A DNA stretch of 64,000 bases from Salipaludibacillus sp. LMS25 (lineage in GTDB: Bacteria; Bacillota; Bacilli; Bacillales; Salisediminibacteriaceae), in the NCBI RefSeq assembly GCF_024362805.1, contig NZ_CP093299.1, positions 4,062,001 to 4,126,000 of the forward strand, written 5' to 3'. Position 1 is the stretch's first letter. The number at the start of each line of letters is the position of its first letter. Below, in pieces: positions 8,192 through 63,347 of the stretch. The notes beneath the pieces were generated by a model. That model worked only from the letters and a program-made list of their open reading frames with translations, did no database searches and was not told the DNA's origin. The position numbers and the translations under genes are program-made.

Positions 8192-8398
8192 GTTTATCAC
8201 GGATAACCGTCCGTAAAACTCCCCTGATTGAAAGGTCGTTTTATCCCACTCTTAAGGGGCAGTAAAACCCCCATCTCAAAACTTAAGAAGATCGAAAAGT
8301 TTAGGTGGGGGGATAAACTGCCCCTTAAGGTCCCATAAGTTAAACGAACAATCAGTGGGGATGAAGGAAAACTCCCATTGATTGAAGCTTAGCTTTAT
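8192..8398 (-). repeat. Dispersed modular hairpin repeat, longest copy (R1)
   Basis: The reverse complement of 8240-8398 matches 47629-47786 nearly base for base, so this is a mobile or amplified element and not a unique leader. Read on the minus strand it begins AAAGCTAAGCTTCAATC. It then has hairpin A (arms CAATCA-TGGG and CCC-ACTGATTG) and hairpin B (arms ACTGCCCCTTAAG / CTTAAGGGGCAGT) enclosing a C-run/G-run inner stem. It continues through a second TTCAATCAG-GGGAGTTTT unit and CGGACGGTTATCCGTGATAA, a segment shared with the partial copy at 27187-27240. It lies about 20 bases past the aroA terminator. Its function is unknown. Confidence 0.9.
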
Positions 8399-9100
8399 TT
8401 AGTCATGTTGTAGAACGTGTTTTCAAACAACACCTATTTTCATGCAAACTTCCTAGAATGATAGAGGATGAAAGGAGAGATGCTTTTCTATGTCAAATTT
8501 CTCATAACCACTGTTTCTCTGTGTTTTGACGGTGTAGTGAGATTAGCAATAATCCAACAGAGAATACCCTTTGTTCCAATCAGTGCGTAAAAAGTGAATT
8601 ATTGCGTTTGCAAAGCTGATAGTATAGTTAGGACGATGGGTCTAAGCTTTACTGAAACAGAAAAACCGACCGAGAGTAATGGCGATTTAGTGTTTTGTAA
8701 AGCTGATGAACGATTTTCTAAATCTAATTTGTATGTTTAGCTAAAACGTTAACGCAACCCAAATAATCTAGCTTCATGTAAAAGATAAACGAAAGCTATC
8801 ATCTGAAAATGGTTATTTGACGTTTTTTTGAGGAACAAGGTTGGAACCCAGCAGGAGGAGAGAGCAAACTGAAATCCAGTAGCATAGCCAGTTAGTTCAG
8901 CACTCGTGTGTGGCTCTCTTCTTGGCAGCGATCGGTTTAAAGAACTTGTAGGCTTATGTCATGTTGTGGTTAAGTTATAGCGACTAATGCGAATATACTC
9001 GTGTTAGTCAAAGTAACACTTTTGCTTATTTAAATATCTGGAATCTACATAAGTATCTAGCATATCCCACATGTTTGAATCATAGCTTGTCACTAAAAGG
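8399..9100. other. About 700 bp with no convincing gene
   Basis: No frame over 40 codons with plausible coding character was found. A 36-codon reading frame at 8480 has an AAAGGAGAG sequence upstream but no recognisable product. A weak imperfect inverted repeat around 8866-8925 (GGAGAGAGC and GCTCTC) is the only structure noted. Confidence 0.5.
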
Positions 9101-9115
9101 ACGGAGTTGGTTGCT

Positions 9116-10024
9116 ATGAAATATGTCATTCAAGTGCATGATGGGGATAATAGTACTGCAAACGTAAAAAAGATCATTGTGGAAGACGGGGTCGTCCAAA
9201 TCTTTAACAACAGTAATATTTCTCAACGTGTTAAATATGTGGATACAGAAGGCTTTACTGTCCTTCCGGGAAAAGTTATTTTAAAAGAAAACGTTTTGAC
9301 ACAAATGACAGAGGATGATATGATCTCTTTTTCAAAACATCTATTTCTTCATGGATTTTCAACTTTTATTCATCTTATAGAGATAAACTATGAAAGTGAA
9401 ACGGGTAAATTTTTAGAATCATCGAGACACCTATTAAAAAAATGTCCAGCTGATTATATTCATGCTGTAAGGCTTCCATTGAGACGCTTAACCCCCTCTT
9501 GGGTTAGAAAACTAAAAAAGCTGTCTGTTCCACTTATTGTTTTTACGGTGCAAACGGAGGATGACCTTAATAAAGCACCTTGGCAACGATTAATTGAAGC
9601 GGCTTTTCCATTAAGGATGATGTTTATTTTTGATCAAAAAAACTCAGACTTGAGGGAGAGACAAAAACTTAAAGCACAACAGTGCTGGGAACAAATTGTT
9701 AAGTTTAGACGTATAAACAGTTATTTTCAGTTACCTGAACAACATGAGGCACTCCCTCTTCTATTTTTAAAAAGAATGGGCTTATATCCACAAAAAGGCA
9801 CGTTTGATTCAGGAGCTCATGCAGACTATTTTATGTATTGGGAAAAGGATTTAAACGAAACGGTGGAAGGATTACACCTACCTGATGTTATCGTTCTTAA
9901 AGGGCATGTTGTTAAGTCTGGATCCTATTGGTTTATTGAGGAAGCGGTAGGCTGTGAATTGACTTCAACCATGCCAGAGCAATTTCTATCAATTAGTGAA
10001 GTGCATCAATATACGGTTAAATAA
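9116..10024 (+). CDS. Degenerate amidohydrolase-like protein, probably non-catalytic
   Basis: The 302-residue product is not a family I can name exactly. Its outline resembles a metal-dependent amidohydrolase: an N-terminal small-domain strand, a GFTVLPGKVILKENVL segment where such enzymes have 'hxPGxIDxHxH', a barrel-like middle, and a C-terminal GAHADYFMYWEKD...LPDVIVLKGHVVKSG segment like the usual 'GxxADxxxxD...V..V...G..V'. The metal-binding HxH is absent (ILKEN) and no other obvious metal ligands stand out. The ATG at 9116 is preferred over TTG 9107 because CGGAG lies 9 bases upstream. It stands alone between a repeat region and the ypiA promoter. Function unknown; a regulatory or structural role is inference. 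Confidence 0.6.
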   Translation: MKYVIQVHDGDNSTANVKKIIVEDGVVQIFNNSNISQRVKYVDTEGFTVLPGKVILKENVLTQMTEDDMISFSKHLFLHGFSTFIHLIEINYESETGKFLESSRHLLKKCPADYIHAVRLPLRRLTPSWVRKLKKLSVPLIVFTVQTEDDLNKAPWQRLIEAAFPLRMMFIFDQKNSDLRERQKLKAQQCWEQIVKFRRINSYFQLPEQHEALPLLFLKRMGLYPQKGTFDSGAHADYFMYWEKDLNETVEGLHLPDVIVLKGHVVKSGSYWFIEEAVGCELTSTMPEQFLSISEVHQYTVK

Positions 10025-10045
10025 TAAGCATATAGCGCCTTTTTG

Positions 10046-10073
10046 TTGACTCGTGGACAAAGTGAGGTAAAAT
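10046..10073 (+). promoter_or_regulatory. SigA-type promoter of ypiA
   Basis: TTGACT (10046-10051) and TAAAAT (10068-10073) are 16 bases apart, 48 bases before the ypiA start. Confidence 0.65.
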
Positions 10074-10121
10074 GAAGGTCAAATGAAGTCAAAGGCTGCA
10101 TAGAAAGGAAGCTTGTAAGTC

Positions 10122-11396
10122 ATGAATGAAAAATTAGCGCGCGCCATCCAATTGATCGAACAAGGTCAACATGAGGAAGGTTTAAAAAAAGTAGAAGAAA
10201 TAGGAAAAGAAGCGGATGATGAAACGAAACGAACAATTAGTGAATTATATTACGAATTAGGCCTAGTAGATAAAGCTCTATCATTATTGGAACCACTTAT
10301 GTTTAAATACCCAGACAATGGGGAGCTTTTTGCCTTCGCAGCAGAATGCTATAGTGAACTAGGAAAAGAAGATGAAGCAATTGATATGCTCACCGAAATT
10401 AAATACAATGATGCGGCTTACGTACAGGCACAACTTCTCCTAGCAGATTTATATGAACATCAAGGTTTATCAGAAGTAGCAGAACAAAAACTGCTAGAAG
10501 CCATTAAAAATGAACCTGATAACCCAGTTCTTCAATTTGGTTTAGGGGAATTTTATTTAAGCCGTGGGGAATATAGACAGGCGATTTCATACTACAAAAA
10601 AGCGATTTATCAAGGGAAGCTTCCCGATGATCTACCAGTAAACCCAAAACTTAAATTGGCAGAAGCTTACAGCGCCACAGGTGAGTTTGAGGACGCGATG
10701 GTTAATTATAAGGAAGGACTTGAAGACGATGAAACACCTGATGGCTTATTCGGCTATGGTTTTACGTCACTCCAAATAGAAGATTATGAAACAGCGATAA
10801 CTGTCTTTAATCGACTTATTGAGATAGATCCAGACTACACGACTGTCTACACGTATCTTGCAAAAGCCTATGTTGCTGAGAAAAAATTTTCCGAGGCTTT
10901 GAAAGTGCTAGAGGAAGGAATAAAAAAAGATGAGTTTAACGAGGAGTTGTATTTAGAATTAGCAAAACTACAGTTTTCGCTCGGAAATAATCAGAAAGGG
11001 GTTGAATTTTTAGAAAAAGTCATTGCTCTTAACCCATCAAATGTCTCTGCGGTAAAGGAGCTGCTTTTCTATTTTGATGACGAAGAGGATTATGAATCTC
11101 TCATAGAACTATTAGCATTTTTGGATGACTATGGTGAGTTTGATCCGTTATTTGAACGGTATAGAGGAAAAGCCTTATTTGAAGAAAATGATATTGAAGG
11201 GGCAGTGAAAGCTTATGATATCGCACTAGAATCATTAATTAAAGATGAGATACTGCTTGAAGAAGCGGCAACGGTGTATTTAGTAGCTGGTAATAAAGAG
11301 CGAGCTGTCCATTTATTAGAGGACTTTCTCTTGTTACAACCTCACCGCTTCGACATTGAAGAGCGACTTGTCGATTTAAAAAGAGAGCAAGTATGA
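10122..11396 (+). CDS. ypiA: Tetratricopeptide-repeat protein YpiA
   Basis: A 424-residue cytoplasmic protein built almost entirely of TPR units (for example ELYYELGLVDKALSLLEP, GEYRQAISYYKKAI and AYVAEKKFSEALKVLEEG at roughly 34-residue spacing). The length matches B. subtilis YpiA, which also lies between aroA and ypiB. TPRs suggest a scaffold role; the partner is not evident. It starts at ATG 10122 behind AAAGGAAGC. The composition is strongly acidic. Confidence 0.92.
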   Translation: MNEKLARAIQLIEQGQHEEGLKKVEEIGKEADDETKRTISELYYELGLVDKALSLLEPLMFKYPDNGELFAFAAECYSELGKEDEAIDMLTEIKYNDAAYVQAQLLLADLYEHQGLSEVAEQKLLEAIKNEPDNPVLQFGLGEFYLSRGEYRQAISYYKKAIYQGKLPDDLPVNPKLKLAEAYSATGEFEDAMVNYKEGLEDDETPDGLFGYGFTSLQIEDYETAITVFNRLIEIDPDYTTVYTYLAKAYVAEKKFSEALKVLEEGIKKDEFNEELYLELAKLQFSLGNNQKGVEFLEKVIALNPSNVSAVKELLFYFDDEEDYESLIELLAFLDDYGEFDPLFERYRGKALFEENDIEGAVKAYDIALESLIKDEILLEEAATVYLVAGNKERAVHLLEDFLLLQPHRFDIEERLVDLKREQV

Positions 11397-11593
11397 TATA
11401 ATAATAGAAATAATACTGCTTTCAAAAAAACATGAGTTAAAATAAGTTTTTGAAGGATTTTTTAAAACGGTGGCGAATAGTTATCATTATAAAGGCTGTT
11501 AGTCATACATTGGCATGTTCATTTAATTAAGACGTTTAAGCCGCAGTTGTTAAGGTTAAAGAGTTCCTGTCCACATTCTAAAGGGAGGGGTTC

Positions 11594-12145
11594 ATGATGA
11601 CAAATTCAGTTCCGGTTATGGATAAAAGGGAATTTTTAAAATGGTTTCTTGAGTCATATCAGCTTAAACGAAGAGAATGTGCTTGGCTTTTGAACTTTTT
11701 GATGAGTGATGATATTTTAATGGAGCGGGTACATTTCGTAGAGCAAGCTGAACATTGTCCAAAAGCACTCATGATCTCTGCAAATGACGTGGATCATGTT
11801 CCATTTGCTTTTCATAAAAATCAACATGTGACGATGGATGCAGAGAAATCATTTCATGACATTCGTTTAAATCGCAACGAGGACATTTTTATCCAATTGA
11901 ATTTTAAGGATAAACAAATGACGCCATCATACATGGCAGTCCTTGAAGAAAACCCCTATTTACCAGTAAATAACGAAGAAGAAAATGTAAATGGCCTTTT
12001 AGCAGAAATCATAATTGAAGAATCTTTAAGAAGACATACTATAAAAAAAATGGAAGAAGAAATTGATGAAGCACTAGTGATGGGGAATGAATCTAAATTT
12101 TATGAGCTTGCAGAAAGATATACTCAGTTAAAAGCCCTTGATTAA
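11594..12145 (+). CDS. ypiB: YpiB, UPF0302 family protein with C-terminal IDEAL motif
   Basis: A 183-residue cytoplasmic protein matching B. subtilis YpiB in size and position. The N-terminal part (WFLESYQLKRRECAWLLN) is the UPF0302 domain. The last 40 residues (EEIDEALVMGNESKFYELAERY) are an IDEAL-type helix of the kind found in YpiB and YpeP-like proteins. The precise function is not established. AAGGGAGGGG precedes tandem ATGs at 11594 and 11597. The stop codon lies inside the terminator hairpin. Confidence 0.9.
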   Translation: MMTNSVPVMDKREFLKWFLESYQLKRRECAWLLNFLMSDDILMERVHFVEQAEHCPKALMISANDVDHVPFAFHKNQHVTMDAEKSFHDIRLNRNEDIFIQLNFKDKQMTPSYMAVLEENPYLPVNNEEENVNGLLAEIIIEESLRRHTIKKMEEEIDEALVMGNESKFYELAERYTQLKALD

Positions 12146-12156
12146 GGGCTTTTAGT
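12130..12156 (+). terminator. Terminator overlapping the ypiB stop codon
   Basis: A perfect 10-bp stem AAAAGCCCTT / AAGGGCTTTT has the ypiB TAA (12143-12145) at the loop/3' arm junction. The poly-U tail is short (TTTTAGTTT). Confidence 0.8.
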
Positions 12157-12264
12157 TTGTGAAAATGACGTATATGTTTTTTTGGATGCATTATTAGTGG
12201 CCCTATTATTCGCAGAATATTAAGTGCGACATGACTCATTACATAATAAGAGGGAGTGGATAAG

Positions 12265-12744
12265 ATGAAATGGCTAACAGAAAATTATCATATGTATGAG
12301 CAGGCGAAGGAGTATGTGGATACAGCTTTAATACCACTTATTCCATTAAATTGGGGGGTGGAAGCTAAACAAACAATCGTAAAAGGCGAATTCACGTCTT
12401 ATTTAGCAGAGTATTTAGAAACTCAGTTTACAGGTAGAGTATTTTTAATGCCTCCTTTCACTTATTTAACATTTGAGTCGTCTGACGGTAAGCTGAATAG
12501 GTTAAAACAGTGGGAAAAGCATTTAAATGCTAATGGTTTTAAACATGTTATTTACATAACGGCTGATATTACATGGCGAGCGGTCTCCAGGGAGCTTTCA
12601 GATGACTTAATATGGATACCGGTTTCAACGGTAGAATCAATGGGAAAATCGCAATATCGCGCGACAATAGAACAGCAGGGGAAAGAGTTAATGCCAATAT
12701 TTACGACAAAGTGGCAAGTGGAACCGAAATCTAGAGAGGAATAG
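12265..12744 (+). CDS. ypiF: YpiF, DUF2487 family protein
   Basis: A 159-residue soluble protein located between ypiB and qcrA as in B. subtilis. It contains IPLIPLNWG near residue 28 and an alternating beta/alpha pattern typical of the DUF2487 family; no catalytic motif is recognisable. ATG 12265 is chosen because GAGGGA (12249-12254) lies 10 bases upstream; an in-frame GTG at 12256 would be too close. Its link to the cytochrome genes is by position only. Confidence 0.85.
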   Translation: MKWLTENYHMYEQAKEYVDTALIPLIPLNWGVEAKQTIVKGEFTSYLAEYLETQFTGRVFLMPPFTYLTFESSDGKLNRLKQWEKHLNANGFKHVIYITADITWRAVSRELSDDLIWIPVSTVESMGKSQYRATIEQQGKELMPIFTTKWQVEPKSREE

Positions 12745-12779
12745 GACATTATTCTTCTAAAATGATTGAACGGATTTTA

Positions 12780-12809
12780 TTGACAGAGCCTGTTTTTTTG
12801 GGCTATCAT
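12780..12809 (+). promoter_or_regulatory. SigA-type promoter of qcrABC
   Basis: TTGACA (12780-12785), an 18-base spacer, then TATCAT (12804-12809). The spacer contains a small AGCC...GGCT dyad. qcrA begins 62 bases later. Confidence 0.65.
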
Positions 12810-12871
12810 AATACTGTCTTAGTATGTTTTTATGTGTGAATTGGATAACTGTAAGTGAAGGAGGGAAGGTC

Positions 12872-13381
12872 GTGAGTGATGAGAAAAAACACCGGGTGTC
12901 TAGACGCCAATTTTTAACTTATACTTTAACAGGTGTAGGCGGTTTCATGGCGGCGGGTATGCTAAGTCCTATGGTCAGAATGGCGTTGGATCCTGCACTA
13001 GGGACAACGGGAGAATCAGATTTTATATCGGTTGGTATTACTGAAGATGAACTGACAGATGAGCCTCAAATTGTGAAATTTCAAGTTGATATTGACGATG
13101 CGTGGTACCAATCAGAACAACCCCAAACTGCATGGATTTACAAAGACGGTGATGAGATTATTGCATTATCACCTACCTGTACGCATTTAGGTTGTACAGT
13201 TGACTGGGATACTAACGAAAATTATCCAGAGCAGTTTTATTGTCCCTGCCATGATGGACGATTCGAAAGAGACGGGACAAACATTCCAGGTACGCCGCCG
13301 ACGCGACCGTTGGACACCTACGAAGTGGAAGTCCGTGACGGAGCGATTTATCTTGGACAAATCAATCAGCGTGATGCTTAA
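12872..13381 (+). CDS. qcrA: Menaquinol:cytochrome c reductase Rieske iron-sulfur subunit
   Basis: The 169-residue product has a twin-arginine signal anchor (SRRQFLTYTLTGVGG, then a hydrophobic stretch) and a Rieske domain with CTHLGC near residue 104 and CPCHDGRF near residue 126, supplying the two Cys and two His of the 2Fe-2S cluster. It passes electrons from menaquinol to the cytochrome c part of the complex. GTG 12872 follows AAGGAGGGA (12858-12866). The Tat signal ties it to the tatA/tatC genes at 58.8-59.8 kb in this window. Confidence 0.96.
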   Translation: MSDEKKHRVSRRQFLTYTLTGVGGFMAAGMLSPMVRMALDPALGTTGESDFISVGITEDELTDEPQIVKFQVDIDDAWYQSEQPQTAWIYKDGDEIIALSPTCTHLGCTVDWDTNENYPEQFYCPCHDGRFERDGTNIPGTPPTRPLDTYEVEVRDGAIYLGQINQRDA

Positions 13382-13394
13382 GGGGGCGTAAGAA

Positions 13395-14066: not shown

Positions 14067-14097
14067 AGATGGATGGAAGTGAAAAGGAGGAAAAGCT

Positions 14098-14922: not shown

Positions 14923-14963
14923 CTTTAAAACATAGGGGCAAGTAACCCCTTTCATTATGAGAG

Positions 14964-15006
14964 AAGGAGCAGGGTGCCTGAGAGCATTTACTGGCTCCTT
15001 TTTTTA
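14964..15006 (+). terminator. Terminator of qcrABC
   Basis: AAGGAGC (14964-14970) pairs with GCTCCTT (14994-15000), followed by a run of T residues. A smaller GGGG/CCCC dyad lies just upstream at 14934-14950. Confidence 0.8.
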
Positions 15007-15554
15007 TCGGCCCCTTCATTCGGGGAAGCTTTACATAGGTCCATACATGTTATCATTTTCTGTTTTTTTTAGACACCTCTGAAATCGTGATGACATAAAT
15101 CTCGTTATATGAAAAAAATAGTGATTTAGATCAGTTCAGAATCTGTTGCTAGCGGATGCTTCTTGTACCCACAGAAAGGTAATGTGGTACCATTTTAAAC
15201 TGATATCGTTTGGATGAAAGCAAGTAGATGGAGAGTCTCACCCACTATCATGGATTTAGGGTATACTTTGTGAGTGGTTTGTACAAAGGTAAAATTAAAA
15301 ACGTCATTTTTAGCGGCTATTCGTAATTGCTAGTTTCGCCTTCAGTGGGTTCCAGGCCAGAACCTGTGATGATTTAAGCGTATTTAAGGGGATCTTTGAA
15401 AACTGGTGATGCGTGATGTTGGAGTAACAAATTTAGGCGTGAGCTAACGGGCGCTACTGTCCTGATTGAAGGGTCGTTTTATAGAAAATAGTTGGTTAGA
15501 AGGTTAGAAATTGATAGAATAAGCAGCATAGTAATTGAGAAGGAAGCGATGGAA
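15007..15554. other. Intergenic stretch with a short repeat fragment
   Basis: No gene is visible. The only recognisable piece is CTGATTGAAGGGTCGTTTTA at 15462-15481, a fragment of the dispersed hairpin repeat described at 8192-8398 (called R2 here), in the same orientation as that copy. Confidence 0.6.
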
Positions 15555-16163: not shown

Positions 16164-16241
16164 CGATATTTCTTCACTGTTTTCGGTCTATCCTTGTCCT
16201 TTTTTTCATAGGATGAACTATGACAAAGAGGAGGGACAGGC

Positions 16242-17054: not shown

Positions 17055-17067
17055 AAAGGCAAATTTG

Positions 17068-24675: not shown

Positions 24676-24996
24676 AGGACAGTATCGTTTATGAGCTGTA
24701 CCTTGAAATAGAAGTACAATTAAAATGAATGGCTGCCTTGATCCGGCATGGACGGGGACAGAGGGTTGAACAAGAAACAGTGACATGATGAGTAAGATCA
24801 TCTAGCATTCTGCTGGTGCCTTTCCCCATGTTCCTGATAAGCTCAAAACGACCTTCTCTCCAATCGAGAAGGTTTTTTCATTGAGTGGCTGTCTTAATAA
24901 TAGTGTCCAAAAACTATTAGGTTAATGAAAATCTGACAACGGCAGCTTGTTCAAATGGTATCCTTCTTTCCCTTTCAAATTGAAAGGAGTAGGAGA
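24676..24996 (+). ncRNA. Candidate regulated 5' leader of panBCD
   Basis: Between the predicted start near 24676 and panB lies about 170 nt of sequence with local dyads (GTAC...GTAC near 24699-24718, CTTG...CAAG near 24740-24775, GATGA...TCATC near 24787-24801), then a strong terminator, then the panB ribosome site. This promoter / structured RNA / terminator / gene order is that of an attenuator or riboswitch. Firmicute panB genes are known to carry the 'pan' RNA motif upstream, but I could not confirm its consensus here. The alternative is a birA terminator plus an unrelated small RNA. No T-box motif (GGTGG-ACC) is present. Confidence 0.5.
24846..24879 (+). terminator. Intrinsic terminator in the panB leader
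   Basis: ACCTTCTC / GAGAAGGT stem (24851-24858, 24866-24873) with a 7-base loop, then TTTTTT. It lies about 120 bases before panB. Confidence 0.88.
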
Positions 24997-25839
24997 ATGA
25001 AAACCACAAAAGACTTTAAAAAGATGAAAAAAGATGGCGAGCCAATCGTGATGGTAACAGCGTATGATGCGCCAGCAGCGGGGATAGCTGAAACCGCGGA
25101 TGTCGATTGTTTACTCGTTGGGGATTCTCTCGGAATGGTTGTATTAGGTTATGAATCCACAGTACCTGTCACATTGGATGATATGGTGCATCATACGAAA
25201 GCAGTTAAACGAGGAGCTCGTGAGACATTTGTTATAACTGATATGCCTTTCCTCACCTATCATTCGTCACGATCAGAAACAGTTAATAACGCTCGAAGAT
25301 TAGTTCAAGAAGCAGGGGCTCATGCTATTAAGCTGGAAGGTAACGGTGACGTCATTACTTATACGAAACATCTTGTTGATGCTGGCGTTCCTGTTGTCAA
25401 TCATTTAGGTTTAACTCCTCAATCAGTAGGTGTATTTGGTGGCTATCATGTTCAAGGAAAACAAGAAAGTGATGCTGAGAGATTAAAGGATGATGCCATT
25501 AAAACAGAAGAAGCAGGTGCATGTATGCTCGTCCTTGAATGTGTCCCCGAATCATTAGCTCAACAAATTTCTCAGCTATTAACGATTCCTGTTATCGGTA
25601 TAGGGGCCGGGAGATTTACTGATGGTCAAGTGCTCGTTTACCACGATATTATCGGTTATAATGACGGCCATGTACCGAAATTTGTAAAACAATATGCCAA
25701 TATAAATGAAACAGCTAAAAACGCCATAACTCAATTCAGCTCCGATGTAAAAAAGAGACATTTCCCTGAACACGTACATGTCTTTCAACCGCTAGAAAAG
25801 ACTGTTTCACACCTCTACGGTAAAGGTGATACGACATGA
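24997..25839 (+). CDS. panB: 3-methyl-2-oxobutanoate hydroxymethyltransferase
   Basis: First committed step of pantothenate synthesis: transfers a hydroxymethyl group from methylene-THF to ketoisovalerate. The 280 residues contain [13 protein letters not shown], the metal-binding [12 protein letters not shown], and the catalytic-Glu region [12 protein letters not shown] 24997 is chosen because AAAGGAGTAGGAG lies just upstream; an earlier in-frame codon at 24955 would put the ribosome site inside the gene. It overlaps panC by four bases. Confidence 0.95.
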
Positions 25840-26690
25840 TGAAACATATTAATAATATCACGGGGATGAAAGAAGAAATTGCTCAACTAAAAGCAGCCAA
25901 AAAAACAATTGGGTTTGTACCTACAATGGGCTCTTTGCATGAAGGACATTTACAGCTCGTAGAAAAAGCGACACAACAGGTAGATGTTGTCATAATGAGC
26001 ATCTTTGTGAATCCTCTCCAGTTTGGCGAAAATGAGGATTTCGATACTTACCCAAGAGACCTAGCAAACGATCTCCAGTTAGCTAAGCAGCATGGGGTTC
26101 ATCAGGTATTCACCCCTACAGCAGATGACATGTACCCTAACACAATGAGTGTTACGATGAATGTGCAAAGAGGAGCAGATATCCTGTGTGGTTCCAGTAG
26201 ACCTGGACACTTTGATGGTGTAGCCACAGTCGTTATGAAACTATTTAATATTATAGAACCTGACGTGGCTTATTTTGGAATGAAAGATGCTCAGCAGGTG
26301 GCTATTATAAAGCAAATGGTAGCTGACTATCATTTAAATGTCACCATTGTACCTATCCCTACTGTAAGGGAAGAAGATGGGCTAGCGATGAGTTCGCGTA
26401 ACGTCAATTTGTCACACATGGAAAGACAGGAAGCACCTCACATTTATAAAACACTTGCTGAAGCGAAAAGTAAGGCGCTACAAGGACACTTTAAAACGGT
26501 GGCTCAGCTTGAGGAATGGGTAAATCACACACTGAAAAAACGTCTCGTGTTAGGCAAAGTAGATTACATTTATTTTCTGAAATTTCCGTCCTTAACCCGT
26601 CCGAGCACTATTGCAGGGAGTGCCATACTAGCTACGGCTGTTCACTATGAAAAGACGAGACTTATTGATAATGTAACGTGGGAACAATGA
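25836..26690 (+). CDS. panC: Pantothenate synthetase
   Basis: Condenses pantoate and beta-alanine with ATP. The 284 residues carry the nucleotidylyl-transferase motifs [14 protein letters not shown] near residue 31 (HxGH type), [17 protein letters not shown] and the KMSKS-like MSSRNVNLS near residue 188. It starts at overlapping ATG codons (25836, 25839) in the panB stop and is followed 30 bases later by panD. Confidence 0.95.
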
Positions 26691-26720: not shown

Positions 26721-27104
26721 ATGTATCGTGAAATGATGAGTGGGAAAATTCACCGGGCAACCGTGACAGAAGCAAACTTACATTATATTGGCAGTATCAC
26801 GATTGATAGTGACTTATTAAAAGCAGTTGGCATGTTAGAAAATGAAAAAGTTCACGTCGTGAATAATAACAATGGTGCACGACTTGAAACGTATATTATA
26901 GCCGGAGCGCCTGGCTCAAAAACAATCTGTTTAAATGGCGCTGCAGCCCGTCACGTTCAACCAGGAGATAAAGTCATTATTATGTCGTACAAGTGGATGG
27001 AAGAGGCGGAAGCTTACAAACATGTGCCGACTGTCGCTATTTTAAATGATCATAACGATATTTTAGATATACTGGGGACTGAGCCAGAAGCGACTATTAA
27101 ATAA
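26721..27104 (+). CDS. panD: Aspartate 1-decarboxylase proenzyme
   Basis: Makes beta-alanine from aspartate. It is synthesised as a 127-residue proenzyme that self-cleaves between Gly24 and Ser25 in [12 protein letters not shown] to create the pyruvoyl cofactor. [12 protein letters not shown] near the N-terminus and [20 protein letters not shown] are conserved family segments. It completes panBCD and is followed by a strong terminator. Confidence 0.96.
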
Positions 27105-27186: not shown

Positions 27187-27240
27187 GTTTTATCACAGAT
27201 AAGCGTCCGTAAAACCTCCACTGATTGAAGGTTCGTTTAT
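27187..27240 (-). repeat. Dispersed hairpin repeat, partial copy (R3)
   Basis: This segment aligns with 8192-8240 of copy R1: TTTATCAC-GATAA-CGTCCGTAAAAC and then TGATTGAAGGTTCGTTT. It therefore represents only the far end of the long element, without the two main hairpins. It lies between the panD terminator and dinG. Confidence 0.75.
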
Positions 27241-40792: not shown

Positions 40793-40847
40793 ATAAAGCT
40801 AAGCTTCAATCAGTGGGAGTTTTACTCCCCTTAAGAGTGGGATAAAA
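40793..40847 (+). repeat. Dispersed hairpin repeat, internally deleted copy (R4)
   Basis: It starts ATAAAGCTAAGCTTCAATC like the full copy but jumps from GGGAGTTTT straight to ACTCCCCTTAAG, ending GAGTGGGATAAAA. In the full copy these segments are separated by about 100 bases and both carry GTTTT, so a deletion between short direct repeats explains the form. It lies between recU and yppC. Confidence 0.88.
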
Positions 40848-47379: not shown

Positions 47380-47628
47380 TTCTTTCAATTGATGGATTCA
47401 ATAAATAGATGAGCTAGAAAATCAACTTAGCAGAGTTATATTAGTTTAGATAATTTCCATACTTGAGCCGATGTCACAATAGAGTTTTTGTATACAATTT
47501 TAAAATATTTATGGAGTTGTGAAAAAGCTCAATTTCTCTATTAATTAATGGTGAAGTTGTTTTTAAATATTAGGAAACTCTATTCCTATCGTTGTAAATC
47601 CGCTTTTTCCTGACGGTGCCCCTTCATT

Positions 47629-47786
47629 AAAAGCTAAGCTTCAATCAGTGGGAGTTTTCCTTCATCCCCCACTGATTGTTCGTTTAACTTATGGGACCTT
47701 TAGGGGCAGTTGATCCCCCACTTAAACTTTTCGACCTTATTAAGTTTTGAGGTGGGGGTTTTACTGCCCCTTAAGAGTGGGATAAA
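47629..47786 (+). repeat. Dispersed hairpin repeat, long copy (R5)
   Basis: It matches the reverse complement of 8240-8398. Hairpin A has arms CAATCAGTGGG / CCCACTGATTG. Hairpin B has arms CTTTAGGGGCAGT / ACTGCCCCTTAAG, enclosing an inner CCCCCAC / GTGGGGG stem. It ends GAGTGGGATAAA. It sits in the decayed 46-48 kb patch. Confidence 0.92.
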
Positions 47787-54048: not shown

Positions 54049-54080
54049 TAATAATTTTGAACACATGCGGGGTGTTTCCT

Positions 54081-55574: not shown

Positions 55575-55613
55575 AAAATTTAAACTAGATAAAATGCTCC
55601 TTCATCAATCATG

Positions 55614-55722
55614 AACTGCACCCCAATTGTTGGACACTGTCTACAATTGGAGGTGCAGTTTTTCTATGGCTAAATATACCCTTGAGGAAAAATTAGCAGT
55701 TACACACTATTTGGAGGTGTAG
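55614..55722 (+). mobile_element. IS3-type element left-end remnant
   Basis: AACTGCACC-CCAATTGT and ACAATTGG-AGGTGCAGTT (55614-55660) form the imperfect terminal dyad of IS3/IS150-type elements. They are followed at ATG 55666 by the first 18 codons of OrfA (MAKYTLEEKLAVTHYLEV) and a stop. The rest of the element is gone. The hairpin plus TTTTTC may now serve as the terminator of sigI-rsgI. Confidence 0.75.
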
Positions 55723-55764
55723 AAAGGTTTTGATGCTAGACTTTTGTCGTAAGTTTGAGCAATC

Positions 55765-56706: not shown

Positions 56707-56721
56707 CCCGCATATGTCTTT

Positions 56722-57762: not shown

Positions 57763-58333
57763 ATATATACCTCCATTTTTTTTGAGGGAAAGTCACCGTA
57801 TCATTTATTTACGAGTTCAACACAGTAAAGTTTCAATATACTACTGTTACCCTAAATTATACAGATATCAAACGAATGACACAATTGAACTTCTCAAACT
57901 GTCCAAAATATTTTAAAGATGGTGTCATAACATGACAGTTTATTGTAATTAGGCAGTATTACCTATCAGTGTAGCAGATAAGGTATAAAGTCCTGATTTT
58001 TATCTAAATCTTCTGTGACATGAGGTGAGAGCGTTAACATAGACCTTTGATACTAGTTGGAGAGAATTACACCTTGAATTAATCTGATGTTGTATGATAC
58101 AAAAGATATAAGAGTAAGGACGATATGTGGTATAAAAGTAGTTTTTAACGTACTAGTTTTCGGTTAGAGGGTTGATTTAGCTGAAGATGAGCCCGTGGGA
58201 AAGCGTCCGCCTGTAGCAGAAGTTCAATGTATGAGTTTTTACAGGGTGGATTGTGTATGATGAAATTGATTCTCTTTAATAACAATTATTAAAAAATAGC
58301 TTTAATATAAATGACTCAGAAAGAGTGATGACG
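57763..58333. other. Intergenic stretch with a fragment of a widespread Bacillaceae repeat
   Basis: No gene is recognised. Bases 58191-58227 (CCCGTGGGAAAGCGTCCGCC, then TGTAGCAGAAGTTCAA) resemble the 3' end of a GC-richer intergenic repeat common in Bacillus relatives (CCCGCGGAAAGCG...GTAGCGGAAATCAA). The local GC rise supports a separate origin. The identification is from memory. Confidence 0.45.
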
Positions 58334-58720
58334 ATGAAAAAATGGATTGGCTTAGGGGTAATGAGTGTTGTAATGGTTTCTGTATGGGGAGTTTTGTTAT
58401 CATTCATGTTTAGTCATGATAATAATAGTGCCTCCAGTTCTGAACCACAAACGATGGATGCGAACGAATCGTTAAATATGCCATCGTACGGTGTTAATGA
58501 GGATGACGTTGTGTCAGTAGAGGAGACAGAAAATGATAAAGTTACCGCTGCAGATAATAATGATGAGTTAGATGATGAAGGGACAAATAAGGACGAGTGG
58601 GATTTTTCAGGAAAATCTGTATCTGTTGCTGATATTACAATTAGAGAAGGCGATGCTATCGGTTATGGAGAAGGTGTCTCTATCGATGAGTTGTTAGAGG
58701 GTTTCTCTATAAGTGAGTAA
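58334..58720 (+). CDS. Small membrane-anchored acidic protein of unknown function
   Basis: A 128-residue protein with a single N-terminal hydrophobic segment (WIGLGVMSVVMVSVWGVLLS) and a low-complexity Ser/Asp/Glu/Asn extracytoplasmic region ending in DFSGKSVSVADITIREGDAI. The acidity fits surface exposure in a haloalkaliphile. No family is recognised. ATG 58334 is chosen, 8 bases after AGAAAGAG; GTG 58325 and ATG 58328 are alternatives. It lies just upstream of tatA, but a separate promoter-like TATAAT sits before tatA. Confidence 0.65.
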   Translation: MKKWIGLGVMSVVMVSVWGVLLSFMFSHDNNSASSSEPQTMDANESLNMPSYGVNEDDVVSVEETENDKVTAADNNDELDDEGTNKDEWDFSGKSVSVADITIREGDAIGYGEGVSIDELLEGFSISE

Positions 58721-58818
58721 TTTTTAAAAATGTTTTTAACATGTTCATAGTAAAATCCGTTAAAACCCCTTATAATAGACAGTAAGTAAGGAATTCTGTC
58801 GAGAGGGGTTTTAATTGT

Positions 58819-59004
58819 ATGTTTTCTAATATTGGCATCCCTGGCCTTTTATTAATATTGGTTATCGCTTTAGTCATCTTTGGACCGAAAAAATTGCCCG
58901 AAATTGGTAAAGCGATGGGACAAACACTTAAAGAGTTTAAAAATTCAACTAAAGAGCTTACTAAAGATGATGATGAAACAAATCATCATCGTAAGAACGA
59001 TTAG
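58819..59004 (+). CDS. tatA: Twin-arginine translocase subunit TatA
   Basis: A 61-residue protein: a short N-terminal membrane helix ([18 protein letters not shown]), the [20 protein letters not shown] amphipathic helix and a charged tail. This is the pore-forming TatA/E type. With TatC (next gene, 76 bases on) it forms a minimal Tat system for folded proteins such as QcrA at 12.9 kb. No tatB is present, as usual in Gram-positives. Confidence 0.95.
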
Positions 59005-59080
59005 TCTCGATAATAGATTGTAGAGAGATGTGAGGTGTAGGTCCATCTGACATCTTTGTCGTGTTTAAGGAGCGTCCAGT

Positions 59081-59824
59081 ATGACAGATAAAAATATGAA
59101 TGTCCTTGATCATTTAGAAGAGTTACGAAAACGAATTTTAATTGTATTTACTGCTTTCCTTCTGATTTTTATCAGTATATTCGTTTTTATAAGGGATATA
59201 TATAGTTGGTTCACACGAGGATTAGATATGCCTTTAGCTGTATTGGGACCATTAGATATAGTCGTTATCTATTTTTCGTTGGCAGCGGTAATCGCTTTTG
59301 CCTTAACAGTTCCTGTGGTTGTGTTTCAGATCTGGCTTTTTGTAAAACCGGCGTTAACAGCTAAGGAAAAAAAAGTCACTGCATTATATATCCCGGCTTC
59401 CTTTTTATTATTTATTGGGGGATTAGCTTTCGGATATTTTGTTGTCATGCCACTCGTACTGAACTTTTTATTAGAATTAGGTACAGGCACGTTTGAGATT
59501 ATGCTTACAGCTGATAAGTACTTTCAATTTGTTCTAAGGATGACAGTCCCGTTTAGTATTTTATTTGAAATGCCTCTTGTTGTCATGTTCTTAACGAGTG
59601 TAGGTATGATGACCCCTATGGCCATGAAGAAAAATCGTAAATACGCGTATTTTGCCATTGTAGTTGTCAGTGTCGTTATTTCACCACCGGACTTTATATC
59701 TGATGTTCTCGTCATAATACCTTTAATTTTGCTTTATGAAATAAGCATCAACTTATCAGCCATTATTTATAGGCGACGGCTTAAACGAGAACAACTAAAA
59801 GAGAGACAGGAGATTGTTAAGTAG
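59081..59824 (+). CDS. tatC: Twin-arginine translocase subunit TatC
   Basis: A 247-residue membrane protein with six helices. The N-terminal NVLDHLEELRKRILI motif, the F-x-x-KPAL segment (FVKPALTAKEKKV near residue 87) and SPPDFISDVLVIIPLILLYE near the C-terminus are TatC signatures. It recognises RR signal peptides. ATG 59081 follows AAGGAGCG. A terminator follows. Confidence 0.95.
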   Translation: MTDKNMNVLDHLEELRKRILIVFTAFLLIFISIFVFIRDIYSWFTRGLDMPLAVLGPLDIVVIYFSLAAVIAFALTVPVVVFQIWLFVKPALTAKEKKVTALYIPASFLLFIGGLAFGYFVVMPLVLNFLLELGTGTFEIMLTADKYFQFVLRMTVPFSILFEMPLVVMFLTSVGMMTPMAMKKNRKYAYFAIVVVSVVISPPDFISDVLVIIPLILLYEISINLSAIIYRRRLKREQLKERQEIVK

Positions 59825-59858
59825 CAACCAGCTGCATCATGTTAAAAACGACTATATG

Positions 59859-59890
59859 AAAAAGTTAGGAGATATTCTCCTAGCTTTTTT
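59859..59890 (+). terminator. Terminator of tatA-tatC
   Basis: A 14-bp stem AAAAAGTTAGGAGA / TCTCCTAGCTTTTT (one G-T pair) with a 3-base loop and continued T-run. Confidence 0.88.
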
Positions 59891-60095
59891 CTATAAGAAT
59901 AATTAATTTTAAGTCAGAAGTGAGAAAAAACTTGTCAAACTTCTTTGCGTGTTATGTTTGTAAAGTAAAAACCGGGTATTGCACACAATCGTCATAGTAT
60001 AGTCAAGATTTCGCCATTAAATGAATCCAAAACTGACCATTTTTATAAGAAAATAAGACTATGCTAGTAGAAAATTAATTGAGGGAGGAAGGTAG

Positions 60096-60992
60096 ATGAT
60101 TTTACAGCCGAAAAAACTTCTGAACAGGCTGTTAAAAAGCCTTCTTGTGTCTTTTATATGTAGTAGTGTTTTTAGCATCATCTTGATAGCCACCGAGATC
60201 CGGCTCCCCTTTCCAATTGAAGCATCCTATACACTGCACCTCATTTTATTTTTGTATCTCACTGTGAAGATTTTTTATGTCAGTTTGTTATTTGATCAAC
60301 TGCATCTTTCGCCCGGGGCTAAAGGGCTTAGCTTATTCTGTTATTTTTTTATAATGACAGGAAGCCTTCAAGTGTTAGAATACCTTATTGCTCAACTTAA
60401 TGTGCACTCTAAAGCAATAGCTGGTCACATTATATATACGTTAGCTGTTTCCACAGTTACATTGTTCGTTTTTAACTATTATGGAGACGGAGAAGAAAGA
60501 TATACGAAGAGGCTAAGACTATATTTCAGTCATCAAAGTTTTTTAAAGTGGCTTTTTAAATGTATCTACGCCATTTTCTTATTATTTGCAGCACATTACT
60601 TAATAAATAGTATGCTCGTTCCATTTATAGAGCCATATTATAACGAGCGATACGTTAACATTTTGAAAGTGCCTTATAATACTCAAACTGTGAAATATGT
60701 TGCCATGGCAACCCATGCAGTTATTATGGTAGTGGGATTTATACCTTTATTTGCCTTATGGAAGGGGTCTAAAACATCACTCTTATTCTGGTTTGGATTT
60801 CCATTATTTTTAACATTAGCTGTTCAACCATTTATTTTTAATCCCCACTGGCCACTTGGTTTTAGATTTCCACTGTTTATTGAAGAAACGCTTATTATGT
60901 CTATTCATGCCATTATTCTCGTGTATCTATTTTATGTAGCAGATGACACGCATAAAGAGGAAGAACTGTTGGAGAATAAATTGAATGTCTAA
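60096..60992 (+). CDS. Polytopic membrane protein of unknown function
   Basis: A 298-residue protein with about eight hydrophobic segments, for example LLVSFICSSVFSIILIATEI, LFCYFFIMTGSLQVLEYLIA and LFWFGFPLFLTLAVQPFIF. A charged loop (GDGEERYTKRLRLYF) lies mid-protein, and the end is acidic. No family is recognised. It starts at ATG 60096 behind GAGGGAGGAAGG and appears monocistronic. Confidence 0.7.
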   Translation: MILQPKKLLNRLLKSLLVSFICSSVFSIILIATEIRLPFPIEASYTLHLILFLYLTVKIFYVSLLFDQLHLSPGAKGLSLFCYFFIMTGSLQVLEYLIAQLNVHSKAIAGHIIYTLAVSTVTLFVFNYYGDGEERYTKRLRLYFSHQSFLKWLFKCIYAIFLLFAAHYLINSMLVPFIEPYYNERYVNILKVPYNTQTVKYVAMATHAVIMVVGFIPLFALWKGSKTSLLFWFGFPLFLTLAVQPFIFNPHWPLGFRFPLFIEETLIMSIHAIILVYLFYVADDTHKEEELLENKLNV

Positions 60993-61278
60993 TTGGTTAT
61001 GCATGGTTAGAAATTAAAATAAAGAGTGTTTCAAAGGGTAGGTGAGTTCCTGTTCACTCATTTCTTCTGCATATTCGATTCTATGCATCAATGACAAATC
61101 CATTAGGTGCTACTCTGTCATCGTCGTCGTTAAATATATCTGTCAAACCATGAGGCGAACTACTTCTCCAGGGAAGATAGGGCTCATACGCCATTCGATT
61201 CTGATATTGGTGCAGTGTTTATCTCCCTATAATCTCAACAGAATTAGGGGAAATAGAGCCACTTAAAATCACAGATTC
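60993..61278. other. Intergenic stretch of about 290 bp
   Basis: A minus-strand frame ending near 61087 (MAYEPYLPWRSSSPHGLTDI, then an acidic NDDDDRVAPNGFVIDA end) lacks a convincing start and may be a gene remnant. Nothing else was seen. Confidence 0.35.
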
Positions 61279-61341
61279 ATAAAGCTAAGCTTCAATCAGT
61301 GGGAGAAGAACGAATACTCTCACTGATTGAAGGATCGTTTA
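61279..61341 (+). repeat. Dispersed hairpin repeat, short copy (R6) overlapping a gene end
   Basis: ATAAAGCTAAGCTTCAATCA, then GTGGGAG, followed by a modified loop and CTCACTGATTGAAGGATCGTTTA: hairpin A and the GATCGTTT tail without hairpin B. It overlaps the last 15-17 codons of the minus-strand gene at 61292-61762, so the repeat supplies that protein's C-terminus and stop. Confidence 0.85.
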
Positions 61342-61762
61342 ATGCTGCTATTGTTTTTTCCCTATTCCACGTGTAATTGAAATGGCTAGGCTTTAAAAGC
61401 TTAGGGTTAATCATTTCAATTTGGTCTAATTCACCTGAATTTTTTTCGATTGTAAAAGTGAGCCGGTGTATCCCAAGATTATTAACATATGTTTTAGCTT
61501 CTTTTGAAATTAAAATCCAACTATTTGTAGCTACACTATAGGAACTACGAGCTAGAAGTAACTCTCCACGAGTAAGTTGTAACTCAAGATGGTAAGTTCC
61601 TGTTTGATTAATAGGTAATAACATGGAGGAATTTCCTTTAAGCTGCCCCTTTAAAGATGTTACTTCCTGTTCTTCTCCCATACGCATAGGTGTTCTAAGG
61701 ATGAAAAATAATAGTGAGCCAAGAGTGAGCACAGCAATTAAGAGGGATATTTTCGTGTCCAT
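61292..61762 (-). CDS. Unknown membrane-anchored protein in the fluoride operon
   Basis: A 156-residue protein with one N-terminal membrane helix (ISLLIAVLTLGSLLFFIL) and an extracytoplasmic domain of about 120 residues with beta-sandwich-like strands (GTYHLELQLTRGELLLARSS, then HRLTFTIEKNSGELDQIEMI). It has a strong AAAGGAGG ribosome site inside the end of the CLC gene and overlaps it by 25 bases, so it is cotranscribed under the fluoride riboswitch. No family recognised. The last residues (NDPSISESIRSSPTD) are encoded by repeat R6, so the C-terminus may be altered or truncated. Confidence 0.75.
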   Translation of the reverse strand: MDTKISLLIAVLTLGSLLFFILRTPMRMGEEQEVTSLKGQLKGNSSMLLPINQTGTYHLELQLTRGELLLARSSYSVATNSWILISKEAKTYVNNLGIHRLTFTIEKNSGELDQIEMINPKLLKPSHFNYTWNREKTIAALNDPSISESIRSSPTD

Positions 61763-63087
61763 CCTAGTTCGGCCTCCTTTGGTTTAGGAGATTTTGGTAA
61801 ATTACCTAATGTGCTTTCTTCGTGATATTCAAGTGAATTACTTTTTGCCACTCCAACTCTTTGGGCAGTATATATGCCTGTATGCCCTGAAAACATGTAA
61901 CTGATGGCACATGCTGTGAAAAGATAGATGGCGGCTTCTGATCCAAACAGTTCAATTCCCATAACAAAACATGCAACAGGTGTATTAGTAGCGCCTGCGA
62001 AAACAGCGATAAATCCTAACCCAGCCAGCAAAGCTGTCGGAACACCGAGATAACTAGAAAGCGTATTTCCAAGAGTAGCACCAATCGTAAAAAGTGGTGT
62101 AACCTCACCACCTTGGAAACCTGCACCAAGAGTCATTGTTGTCAATAACGTTTTCCAGAAGAAGGAAAGCGGAGAAACCTCTCCTTCAAATGACTCGTGA
62201 ATTAATGGTAGGCTTAAGCCAATATAATCCCTAGTACCTAATATTAGGACAATAATGACAACAATAGATCCACCAACAAAACTTTTCACCATTGGGTTTT
62301 TGAAATATGCAGAAAAAAGTGTTTTAAAACCTTGTGACATTTTACTAAATAAAAGTGCTGTTAAACCGAATATAATAGCGGCTATGATGATTTTTAATAA
62401 TAATACTACTGAAAACTCCGGGACGGCTCCAAGACTGTAATGGGCATGTGGAATACCCCATGCGACAGTTACTCTATCACCGATCAAAGCAGCAAAGAAA
62501 GAAGGAATTAATGCCTGATAACGAATTATTCCAAACACTAACACTTCCAATGCAAAGATCGTTCCTGCTAAAGGGGTGCCAAAAACCGAACCAAAACCTG
62601 CACTAATTCCGCAGACCAAAATGATTTTCCGGTCGATCGCACTTAATTTTAGACGTTTCCATACTGCATCTGCCAAACTACTGCCCATTTGAACTGCTGT
62701 ACCTTCACGACCAGCGGAACCTCCAAAAAGATGGGTCATAATGGTGCCAAATAGAACTAGGGGGGCCATCCTTAGTGGAACACCATCCTTACTATTATGA
62801 ATCTGCTCTAAAATAAGGTTATTGCCTTTACTAGCAACGCCACCATATTTCATATAAACATAACTGACGATAACACCAGCTATAGGTAAAAAGAATAATA
62901 GAATTGGTGTGTTATTTCTCAAGTTTGTTGCCCAATCTAGACTAGCTAAAAATAGTGCAGAAGCCGATCCTGCAAGTAAACCAATAATTCCACTAATAAT
63001 TAGCCATTTTCCTAAAAAGAATAAGGATTGGAGATGAAAGCTATTTCGGATAAAAAGACCAACGTTTTTTTCTTTGAAACTATGCAT
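61738..63087 (-). CDS. CLC-F-type fluoride/proton antiporter
   Basis: A 449-residue CLC-family transporter with about ten or more hydrophobic segments. It has GGSAGREGTAVQMGSSLADA near residue 122: GREGT (not GREGP of chloride CLCs) is the signature of the fluoride-exporting branch. SAGFGSVFGTPLAGTIFALE and GAGFQGGEVTPLFTIGATLG are also present. The fluoride riboswitch directly upstream gives independent support. It exports toxic fluoride across the membrane. AAAAGGAGGAC precedes the start at 63087. Confidence 0.93.
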   Translation of the reverse strand: MHSFKEKNVGLFIRNSFHLQSLFFLGKWLIISGIIGLLAGSASALFLASLDWATNLRNNTPILLFFLPIAGVIVSYVYMKYGGVASKGNNLILEQIHNSKDGVPLRMAPLVLFGTIMTHLFGGSAGREGTAVQMGSSLADAVWKRLKLSAIDRKIILVCGISAGFGSVFGTPLAGTIFALEVLVFGIIRYQALIPSFFAALIGDRVTVAWGIPHAHYSLGAVPEFSVVLLLKIIIAAIIFGLTALLFSKMSQGFKTLFSAYFKNPMVKSFVGGSIVVIIVLILGTRDYIGLSLPLIHESFEGEVSPLSFFWKTLLTTMTLGAGFQGGEVTPLFTIGATLGNTLSSYLGVPTALLAGLGFIAVFAGATNTPVACFVMGIELFGSEAAIYLFTACAISYMFSGHTGIYTAQRVGVAKSNSLEYHEESTLGNLPKSPKPKEAELGWTRKYPS

Positions 63088-63104
63088 AAAGTCCTCCTTT
63101 TTTT

Positions 63105-63190
63105 TAAAAAAAATAGACTCCTGCTAAGGGTTACTTAGCAGGAGTCATTATCTCAAAAGTGAGCGGTTAATGGCGGGTCTCCATCGCCTA
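63105..63190 (-). ncRNA. Fluoride riboswitch (crcB RNA) with expression-platform terminator
   Basis: Read on the minus strand from 63189: AGGCGATGGAGACCCGCCAT, then TAACCGCTCA, a short hairpin, GATAATGACTCCTGC. This matches the crcB RNA consensus (GGCGATG-G--CGCC-TAAC-GC...TAATGACTCCT). The last aptamer bases form the 5' arm of a perfect 13-bp terminator stem (63134-63146 with 63116-63128) followed by TATTTTTTTT. Fluoride binding should favour read-through into the exporter gene 18 bases later. Confidence 0.93.
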
Positions 63191-63209
63191 TGTATTATTT
63201 TATTTCTTA

Positions 63210-63237
63210 ATTTTATCATAGTACTAGTAATCGTCAA
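63210..63237 (-). promoter_or_regulatory. Promoter of the fluoride operon
   Basis: On the minus strand: TTGACG (63237-63232), 16 bases, TAAAAT (63215-63210), placing the start about 15 bases before the aptamer. Confidence 0.65.
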
Positions 63238-63259
63238 CATATCTAATGGCATTCTTAAC

Positions 63260-63347
63260 ATAAAGCTAAGCTTCAATCAGTGGGAGTTTTCCTTCATCCC
63301 CCACTGATTGTTCGTTTAACTTACTGCCCCTTAAGAGTGGGATAAAA
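63260..63347 (+). repeat. Dispersed hairpin repeat, copy lacking hairpin B interior (R7)
   Basis: It has the start and hairpin A of the full copy (ATAAAGCTAAGC, arms CAATCAGTGGG / CCCACTGATTG), then GTTTAACTTACTGCCCCTTAAG, skipping about 70 bases present in R5, and ends GAGTGGGATAAAA. It lies just upstream of the fluoride promoter; with R6 it flanks the operon in direct orientation. Confidence 0.9.

What the first reader, a model, noticed from the sequence alone, without database searches (positions are those of the whole stretch)
8192..63347. A modular dispersed hairpin repeat family in at least seven forms
The same element appears at 8192-8398 (longest), 15462-15481 (fragment), 27187-27240 (far end only), 40793-40847 (internal deletion), 47629-47786 (long), 61279-61341 (hairpin A only, altered) and 63260-63347 (hairpin B interior missing). 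Four copies start with the same (A)TAAAGCTAAGCTTCAATC boundary and three end GAGTGGGATAAA. It has two separable hairpins and an internal direct repeat (TTCAATCAG-GGGAGTTTT). Seven copies in 64 kb implies hundreds per genome if uniform. It has no coding capacity, so it could be a MITE-like element needing a trans-acting transposase, a REP-like element, or a structured RNA. I do not recognise it as a named family.
Basis: seen in the sequence. Interest (0 to 1): 0.75.

Follow-up and report, generated by a model that had tools for sequence, protein, structure and literature searches.

The report
Replication-oriented hairpin repeats of Bacillales
Hundreds of copies of a 160-letter non-coding DNA hairpin have spread through this bacterium and many of its relatives, into the same five-letter target and mostly in one direction relative to chromosome replication, which suggests they jump as single strands at the replication fork with the help of an enzyme not yet identified.

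Summary
All seven pieces are real; 30 shuffled windows gave no match. In 538 kb sampled from the genome there are 115 pieces, 2.5% of the bases, or about 970 per genome by scaling.

The unit is 155-160 bp, with two covarying hairpins, ATAAA at its start and GATAAA at its end, and no inverted ends.

Near relatives show empty sites with one ATAAA where filled sites have two: one ATAAA fitted best in 24 of 29 comparisons.

Copies mostly point one way per replication arm: 80 of 92 here, and 33 of 35 and 24 of 24 listed copies in two other families, with the same polarity. A covariance model finds the family in 69 of 249 genomes of the order, own included.

The anatomy matches that reported for bcr1 of the Bacillus cereus group and behaves like IS200/IS605 single-strand transposition at TTTAT. 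Homology to bcr1 could not be tested. No autonomous copy was found in the stretches read, and some carriers lack known candidate enzymes.

Best reading: a non-autonomous, replication-coupled single-strand mobile element.

The parts
8239..8398 (-). full type-1 unit (hairpin A, spacer, hairpin B)
   Evidence: 94% identical to 47630-47786; profile E 8.6e-38; model E 6.4e-22
8192..8238 (-). tail of a type-2 unit joined to the type-1 unit at the shared ATAAA
   Evidence: profile 128-158 match at 8193-8223
15425..15482 (-). type-2 fragment: start plus part of the left arm of hairpin B
   Evidence: profile 62-105 at 15425-15468; 22-nt match to the 8192-8398 copy at 15461-15482
27187..27240 (-). internally deleted type-2 unit (start joined to the 3' tail)
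   Evidence: profile 4-31 and 127-158; related copies at the same site in G001 and, with a different deletion, in G005
40793..40847 (+). internally deleted type-1 unit; both near relatives have the empty site GGCATGATAAAACCAACG
47628..47786 (+). full type-1 unit
   Evidence: model E 5.7e-25 over positions 1-159; one search lists 42 matches in the genome, itself included, with 40 of 695 first-look candidates scored
61279..61343 (.). head-to-head palindromic form: two unit starts facing each other around hairpin A
   Evidence: profile starts on both strands
63260..63347 (+). type-1 unit lacking the interior of hairpin B

Best explanation
The repeat is a non-autonomous mobile DNA element that moves as folded single-stranded DNA at the replication fork. 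Shown: near-constant length and ends, two conserved hairpins, insertion at a pre-existing ATAAA (TTTAT on the other strand) with one ATAAA before and two after, and an orientation tied to the replication arms in genomes of three families. Inferred: the mobile strand is the TTTAT strand, read 5'-TTTAT|CCCACTC-hairpin B-hairpin A-GCTTAGCTTTAT|. An HUH-type enzyme would bind the two hairpins on the exposed lagging-strand template, cut after TTTAT on the left flank and after the TTTAT at the right tip, and rejoin the excised strand after another TTTAT. Repeated insertion at the ATAAA tip of older copies would give the head-to-tail chains. The enzyme acts in trans and is unknown; a Y1 (IS200-like) enzyme fits best but is not shown. 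By its reported anatomy the family is a wider relative of the bcr1 repeats of the Bacillus cereus group.
For: Empty sites: of 45 elements with recognisable ends, 21 gave 29 joined-flank matches; one ATAAA fitted best in 24, two in 4, none in 1. Orientation: 80 of 92 pieces outside the terminus zone follow the arm; 32 of 34 copies that are not antisense to both neighbouring genes still follow it (my count from the listing, window rows left out); 33 of 35 listed copies in G271 and 24 of 24 in G201, shuffle maxima 29 and 21, with + copies mainly where GC skew is negative, as here. Covariation: 79.5% of cells paired against 37-47% when slid; score 0.206 against at most 0.098 slid; 0 of 500 shuffles for these two measures. 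No strong flank preference beyond ATAAA in 36 copies of this genome. TTTAT is a reported target of group A IStrons, which share their ends with IS200/IS605 elements (PMC4227781, passages); IS608 and ISDra2 are reported to use the lagging-strand template and single-stranded circles (PMC6006769, passages).
Against: No autonomous copy was found in the stretches read. G001, G005 and G088 carry many copies but have no Y1_Tnp match, and G136, G041 and G055 have only fragments; 7 of 7 genomes without a T1 match carry Y1 genes. I found no convincing guide tetranucleotide; the internal loop TTATC of this genus is not kept in other genera. Orientation is weaker in G026 (70 of 91, shuffle maximum 67). 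In one search two of five measures do not stand out against shuffles (30 and 79 of 500 reach them). In one search the 3' end was chosen, among candidates, as the one scoring best with one ATAAA, which favours that result. Empty sites cannot tell an ATAAA carried by the element from a strictly constant 5-bp duplication. The origin was placed by GC skew and coding strand, not by dnaA.
Confidence: 0.6

Rival explanations
1. Site-specific recombination of folded cassettes: a tyrosine recombinase joins ATAAA in a (possibly single-stranded, integron-like) circle to ATAAA in the chromosome. This is close to what the bcr literature suggests.
For: One ATAAA before and two after is what core-site recombination gives; [quoted passage not shown] it would also work in genomes without Y1 genes.
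Against: Copies sit at hundreds of unlinked places with no strong flank preference beyond 5 nt; orientation by replication arm is not expected of double-stranded recombination. Integrase genes near copies were not searched for.
Confidence: 0.17
2. Orientation comes from selection, not from insertion: the repeats serve the chromosome (for example as skewed signals or transcription terminators) and survive mainly in one direction.
For: Orientation follows replication arms; 1 of 68 clusters overlaps a predicted gene of 100 aa or more by over 20 nt.
Against: Many copies are broken or absent from relatives; orientation holds whatever the neighbouring gene directions; 5 of the 7 other genomes of the genus gave no T1 match.
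Confidence: 0.12
3. A small retroelement: an RNA copy inserts by reverse transcription at nascent lagging strands.
For: Structured element, no terminal inverted repeats, and strand bias at forks.
Against: No reverse transcriptase match in G001, G005 or G271, which carry many copies, and only a broken one in G000.
Confidence: 0.05
4. A classical MITE of a DDE insertion sequence.
For: Small, no room for a transposase gene, many copies.
Against: No terminal inverted repeats; no duplication other than the near-invariant ATAAA.
Confidence: 0.03

Closest known systems
bcr1 (group A Bacillus cereus repeats bcr1-bcr3)
   Same: Reported at 147 or 167 bp with a conserved structure in one genome (PMC2267715, table passages), MITE-like (PMC3446304, passages), up to 130 whole copies per genome, mobile, tied to a TTTAT motif (PMC6542083, passages). 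'About 155 bp' and 'TTTAT at each end' are recalled from the abstract of Okstad et al. 2004, which is not held.
   Different: Reported as restricted to the B. cereus group; this family matches in 45 of 106 sampled genera of the order. My estimate of about 420 full units per genome (scaled) is about three times the reported maximum. Sequence homology was not tested because no bcr1 sequence could be fetched.
IS200/IS605 insertion sequences (IS608, ISDra2) and group A IStrons
   Same: Subterminal hairpins, insertion next to a fixed T-rich motif (TTTAT among those reported), lagging-strand-template use (PMC4227781, PMC6006769, passages).
   Different: No room for a transposase gene; some carriers lack any Y1 match; the guide sequence is not identified.
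REP/BIME with RAYT (TnpA-REP)
   Same: Many small non-autonomous palindromes, mostly between genes.
   Different: Longer two-hairpin unit, defined ends, fixed ATAAA target, no constant GTAG (REP features from PMC8266576 and PMC3733652, passages).
CGTC-tagged REPs
   Same: Abundant palindromes that lack a dedicated transposase (PMC3733652, passages).
   Different: Short palindromes reported from five phyla, mostly alpha-Proteobacteria; the passages seen name no fixed 5-nt target.

Membership tests
bcr1 / group A bcr | about 150-165 bp, hairpin structure, many copies mostly between genes | tested here: met
   155-160 bp, covarying hairpins, 115 pieces in 538 kb, 1 of 68 clusters overlapping a predicted gene
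bcr1 / group A bcr | TTTAT (ATAAA) at each end | tested here: met
   of 83 full copies from eight genomes, 61 end GGGATAAA or GTGATAAA; 63 start ATAAAGC, ATAAAAC or ATAAAGT
bcr1 / group A bcr | sequence homology to bcr1 | not testable with these tools
   no locus named as B. cereus group was obtained; primary papers not held
bcr1 / group A bcr | confined to the B. cereus group (as reported) | tested here: not met
   if this is the same family: named loci are from Neobacillus, Cytobacillus, Lysinibacillus, Sporosarcina, Peribacillus and others
IS200/IS605 | insertion 3' of a fixed short motif without further duplication | tested here: met
   (24 of 29 comparisons)
IS200/IS605 | subterminal hairpins at both ends | tested here: met
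IS200/IS605 | lagging-strand-template preference | tested here: met
   as an orientation bias in genomes, not an experiment; weak in G026
IS200/IS605 | encodes, or is served by, a Y1 transposase | tested here: not met
   no room for the gene in the unit; no Y1 match in carriers G001, G005 and G088
IS200/IS605 | guide tetranucleotide 5' of each palindrome that matches the cleavage site | tested here: inconclusive
   no constant guide seen by eye in alignment A1; the internal-loop candidate fails in other genera
REP (RAYT-associated) | constant GTAG (or CGTC) beside the palindrome | tested here: not met
   variable in alignment A1, though GTAG occurs in some copies
DDE MITE | terminal inverted repeats and variable target duplications | tested here: not met

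The most novel reading that the evidence does not exclude
An order-wide family of single-strand mobile elements is driven by an enzyme that is not a known Y1, Y2 or reverse-transcriptase type. It acts on folded lagging-strand DNA at TTTAT and serves the bcr1 repeats as well.
Probability: 0.22. Interest if true: 0.8.

Novelty: new member of a known kind. Interest (0 to 1): 0.52.

Why it matters
bcr1 has been described as restricted to the B. [quoted passage not shown] The same anatomy in 45 of 106 sampled genera, with empty sites and a replication-linked orientation of one polarity in genomes of three families, gives a concrete testable mechanism: single-strand transposition at TTTAT on the lagging template. 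It also offers many host species in which to look for the enzyme. At 2.5% of the sampled sequence it is also a real force on genome shape.

Tried and rejected
An RNA-only function (riboswitch, terminator): no Rfam family matched the element at gathering thresholds in the window or in four loci, and the empty sites point to mobility.

Internal-loop guide: TTATC in hairpin B is complementary to GATAA in this genus, but in named genera the loop reads GTTGATC, GTTTGAC and the like, so I dropped it.

Autonomous parent: I looked for a unit start and a unit end facing each other across a gene. In the first sampled set two pairs came up: one in L032 157 nt apart, and one in L041 2,410 nt apart whose end piece has its own start, so separate copies. 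In the first 80 named loci one candidate, in L120, is an etfB-like gene (named from recall) between two separate copies. The 40 further named loci and whole genomes were not searched this way.

The G000 IS200-like element (745 bp in L053, L088 and L089 at 99.9-100%, and L090 at 98%; Y1 domain confirmed) has a type-1 unit within about 10 nt of its right end in 2 of these 4 copies. Its ends do not resemble the repeat by eye, so I take this as a shared taste for TTTAT-rich sites, not as proof of a helper.

Retroelement: no reverse transcriptase in carriers G001, G005 and G271. IS91-like Y2: intact matches only in G000 and G201 of 14 genomes; the 14 control genomes rang in none.

Phage carriage: no blastn match in phages and no exact match of one 33-base pattern in viral contigs.
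Full report
Observation. All seven reported places hold pieces of one repeat family. The family profile matches 12 stretches in the window and nothing in 30 shuffles that keep its dinucleotides. In the same genome (one contig, 4,525,667 bases) a sample of 538 kb, including the window, holds 115 pieces, 50 of them near full length, covering 2.5% of the bases. Scaled up, that is about 970 pieces and 420 full units; 158 kb of the sample is one block around the window, the rest 20-kb pieces around the chromosome.

Anatomy. A full unit is 155-160 bp: ATAAA-GC, hairpin A (CAATCAGTGGGAG...CTCCCACTGATTG), a spacer, hairpin B, and GATAAA. There are two main types in this genome, with much the same hairpin A but different outer stems in hairpin B. 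Of 83 full copies from eight genomes, 63 start ATAAAGC, ATAAAAC or ATAAAGT and 61 end GGGATAAA or GTGATAAA. In 30 aligned copies from seven genomes the named structure keeps 79.5% of cells paired, against 37-47% when partners are slid; the covariation score is 0.206 against at most 0.098 slid, and 0 of 500 shuffles reach either. Two other measures do not stand out (pairs with changes on both sides, 30 of 500 shuffles; further pair types, 79 of 500). RNAalifold on its own found only hairpin A; I placed hairpin B by eye, so the score leans towards that structure. Copies form head-to-tail chains sharing one ATAAA (for example L033:16661 and L045:16880, L195). Broken forms include internal deletions and a head-to-head palindrome such as window 61279-61343.

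Insertion. Two relatives, G001 and G005, are 88-90% identical to the window where the searched 9-kb stretch aligns. Over 258-280 kb of matching stretches in the three genomes I joined each copy's flanks with one, no or two ATAAA and compared them with the other genomes. Of 45 elements with recognisable ends, 21 gave 29 matches; one ATAAA fitted best in 24, two in 4, none in 1. The 3' end was picked as the candidate that scored best with one ATAAA, so the count leans that way, but by my reading of the listing about eight independent sites have an ungapped junction with a single ATAAA. The window copy at 40793-40847 is one: both relatives read GGCATGATAAAACCAACG. A G005 copy (concatenated position 171320) is absent from both other genomes at an exact site. 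Many other copies could not be compared: of all 77 merged copies, a good part of the comparisons came out as 'no flank' or 'other'. Units thus insert at a pre-existing ATAAA and add one more, with no other duplication seen. Flanks show no other strong preference in 36 complete copies of this genome.

Orientation. GC skew and coding strand put the origin near 2.0-2.1 Mb and the terminus near 4.2-4.3 Mb of this contig; dnaA was not located. Outside a terminus zone (4.0-4.3 Mb), 45 of 49 pieces on one arm are + and 35 of 43 on the other are -; inside it 10 are + and 13 -. This is not just gene direction: among 34 copies lying between convergent or divergent genes or codirectional with both (window rows left out), 32 still follow the arm (my count from the listing). 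In two genomes of other families the listed copies fit two arcs in 33 of 35 and 24 of 24 cases, where 300 shuffles reached at most 29 and 21. These are the rows shown: 35 of 49 and 24 of 98 matches. GC skew was read from ten 10-kb stretches each: + arcs are mainly negative, as here, with two near-zero stretches of G271 (0.012 and -0.006) on the wrong side. G026 is weaker: 70 of 91 typed rows of 105 matches, shuffle maximum 67. The lagging-strand template thus mostly carries the strand 5'-TTTAT|CCCACTC...GCTTAGCTTTAT-3'.

Spread. By DNA search 10 of 60 genomes match, own included, and 2 of the 7 others in the genus. With a covariance model (built from copies of seven genomes, four of them among those scored), 69 of 249 genomes of the order match at E 1e-4 or better, own included, in 45 of 106 genera; E-values from the short calibration are rough. 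Named loci are from Neobacillus, Cytobacillus, Niallia, Lysinibacillus, Psychrobacillus, Sporosarcina, Peribacillus, Domibacillus, Rummeliibacillus, Terrilactibacillus, Gottfriedia and others (the scan stopped at 120 rows). No title names a B. cereus group species, though several say only 'Bacillus sp.'. In plasmid records there are few: 1 and 5 records in two searches. There was no match in phages and no exact match of one 33-base pattern in viral contigs.

Enzyme. A 160-bp unit has no room for a transposase gene. Y1_Tnp has no match in G001, G005 and G088, and only broken or partial matches in G041, G055 and G136, although all six carry the family. Conversely, 7 of 7 genomes without a T1 DNA match have Y1 genes. 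Reverse transcriptase has no match in G001, G005 and G271 and only a broken one in G000. An intact Y2 transposase appears only in G000 and G201 of 14 tested. Either an enzyme was lost after the insertions, or it is of another type.

Known families. Group A bcr repeats of the B. [quoted passage not shown] PMC3446304, passages). bcr1 is given as 147 or 167 bp with conserved structure in one genome (PMC2267715, table passages). The 2004, 2007 and 2011 primary papers are not held; 'about 155 bp' and 'TTTAT at each end' are recalled from the 2004 abstract. Group A IStrons, related to IS200/IS605 elements, insert after TTGAT, ATTAT or TTTAT (PMC4227781, passages), and IS608 and ISDra2 use single-stranded circles and the lagging-strand template (PMC6006769, passages). 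The repeat thus works like an IS200/IS605 non-autonomous element and looks like bcr1. Membership in either is not proved: no Y1 gene, no guide found, and no bcr1 sequence to compare.

Verdict. This is most likely a bcr1-like, replication-coupled single-strand mobile element of much wider range than reported, with an unidentified enzyme. In the listings and passages I saw there was no report of this family outside the B. cereus group and none of its orientation bias; most primary work on bcr1 is outside that library.

Noticed in passing
window 24676-24765 +: pan motif (RF01749) upstream of ORFs 24955-25839, 25836-26690 and 26721-27104; that these are the pan genes is recalled, not searched.
   Followed up: no
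window 63132-63197 -: Fluoride riboswitch (RF01734) just upstream of the 449-aa minus-strand ORF 61738-63087, next to the repeat at 63260.
   Followed up: no
window 61292-61762 -: A 156-aa ORF ends inside the palindromic repeat copy at 61279-61343, so the repeat may supply its last codons.
   Followed up: no
L053 1284-2028, L088, L089, L090: A 745-bp IS200-like element in four copies (98-100% identical) inserted after T-rich, mostly TTTATT, sites; two copies sit within about 10 nt of a repeat unit.
   Followed up: partly
L042 3685-4346: A repeat copy interrupts a recombinase-like pseudogene; a fragment related to the IS200-like gene lies about 200 bp upstream of the copy.
   Followed up: partly
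L244, L247, L248, L251 (G157): A variant with an extra module of about 25-30 nt (..CCTAAAGG..) between the two hairpins.
   Followed up: no
L294 4001-4063 (CP079755.1): A Klebsiella grimontii plasmid record holds 63 bp of the repeat; a foreign stretch or assembly mix-up should be considered.
   Followed up: partly
L293 3001-3159 (NZ_CP156675.1): Repeat copies on a 355-kb plasmid of Pseudalkalibacillus hwajinpoensis, between annotated genes.
   Followed up: partly
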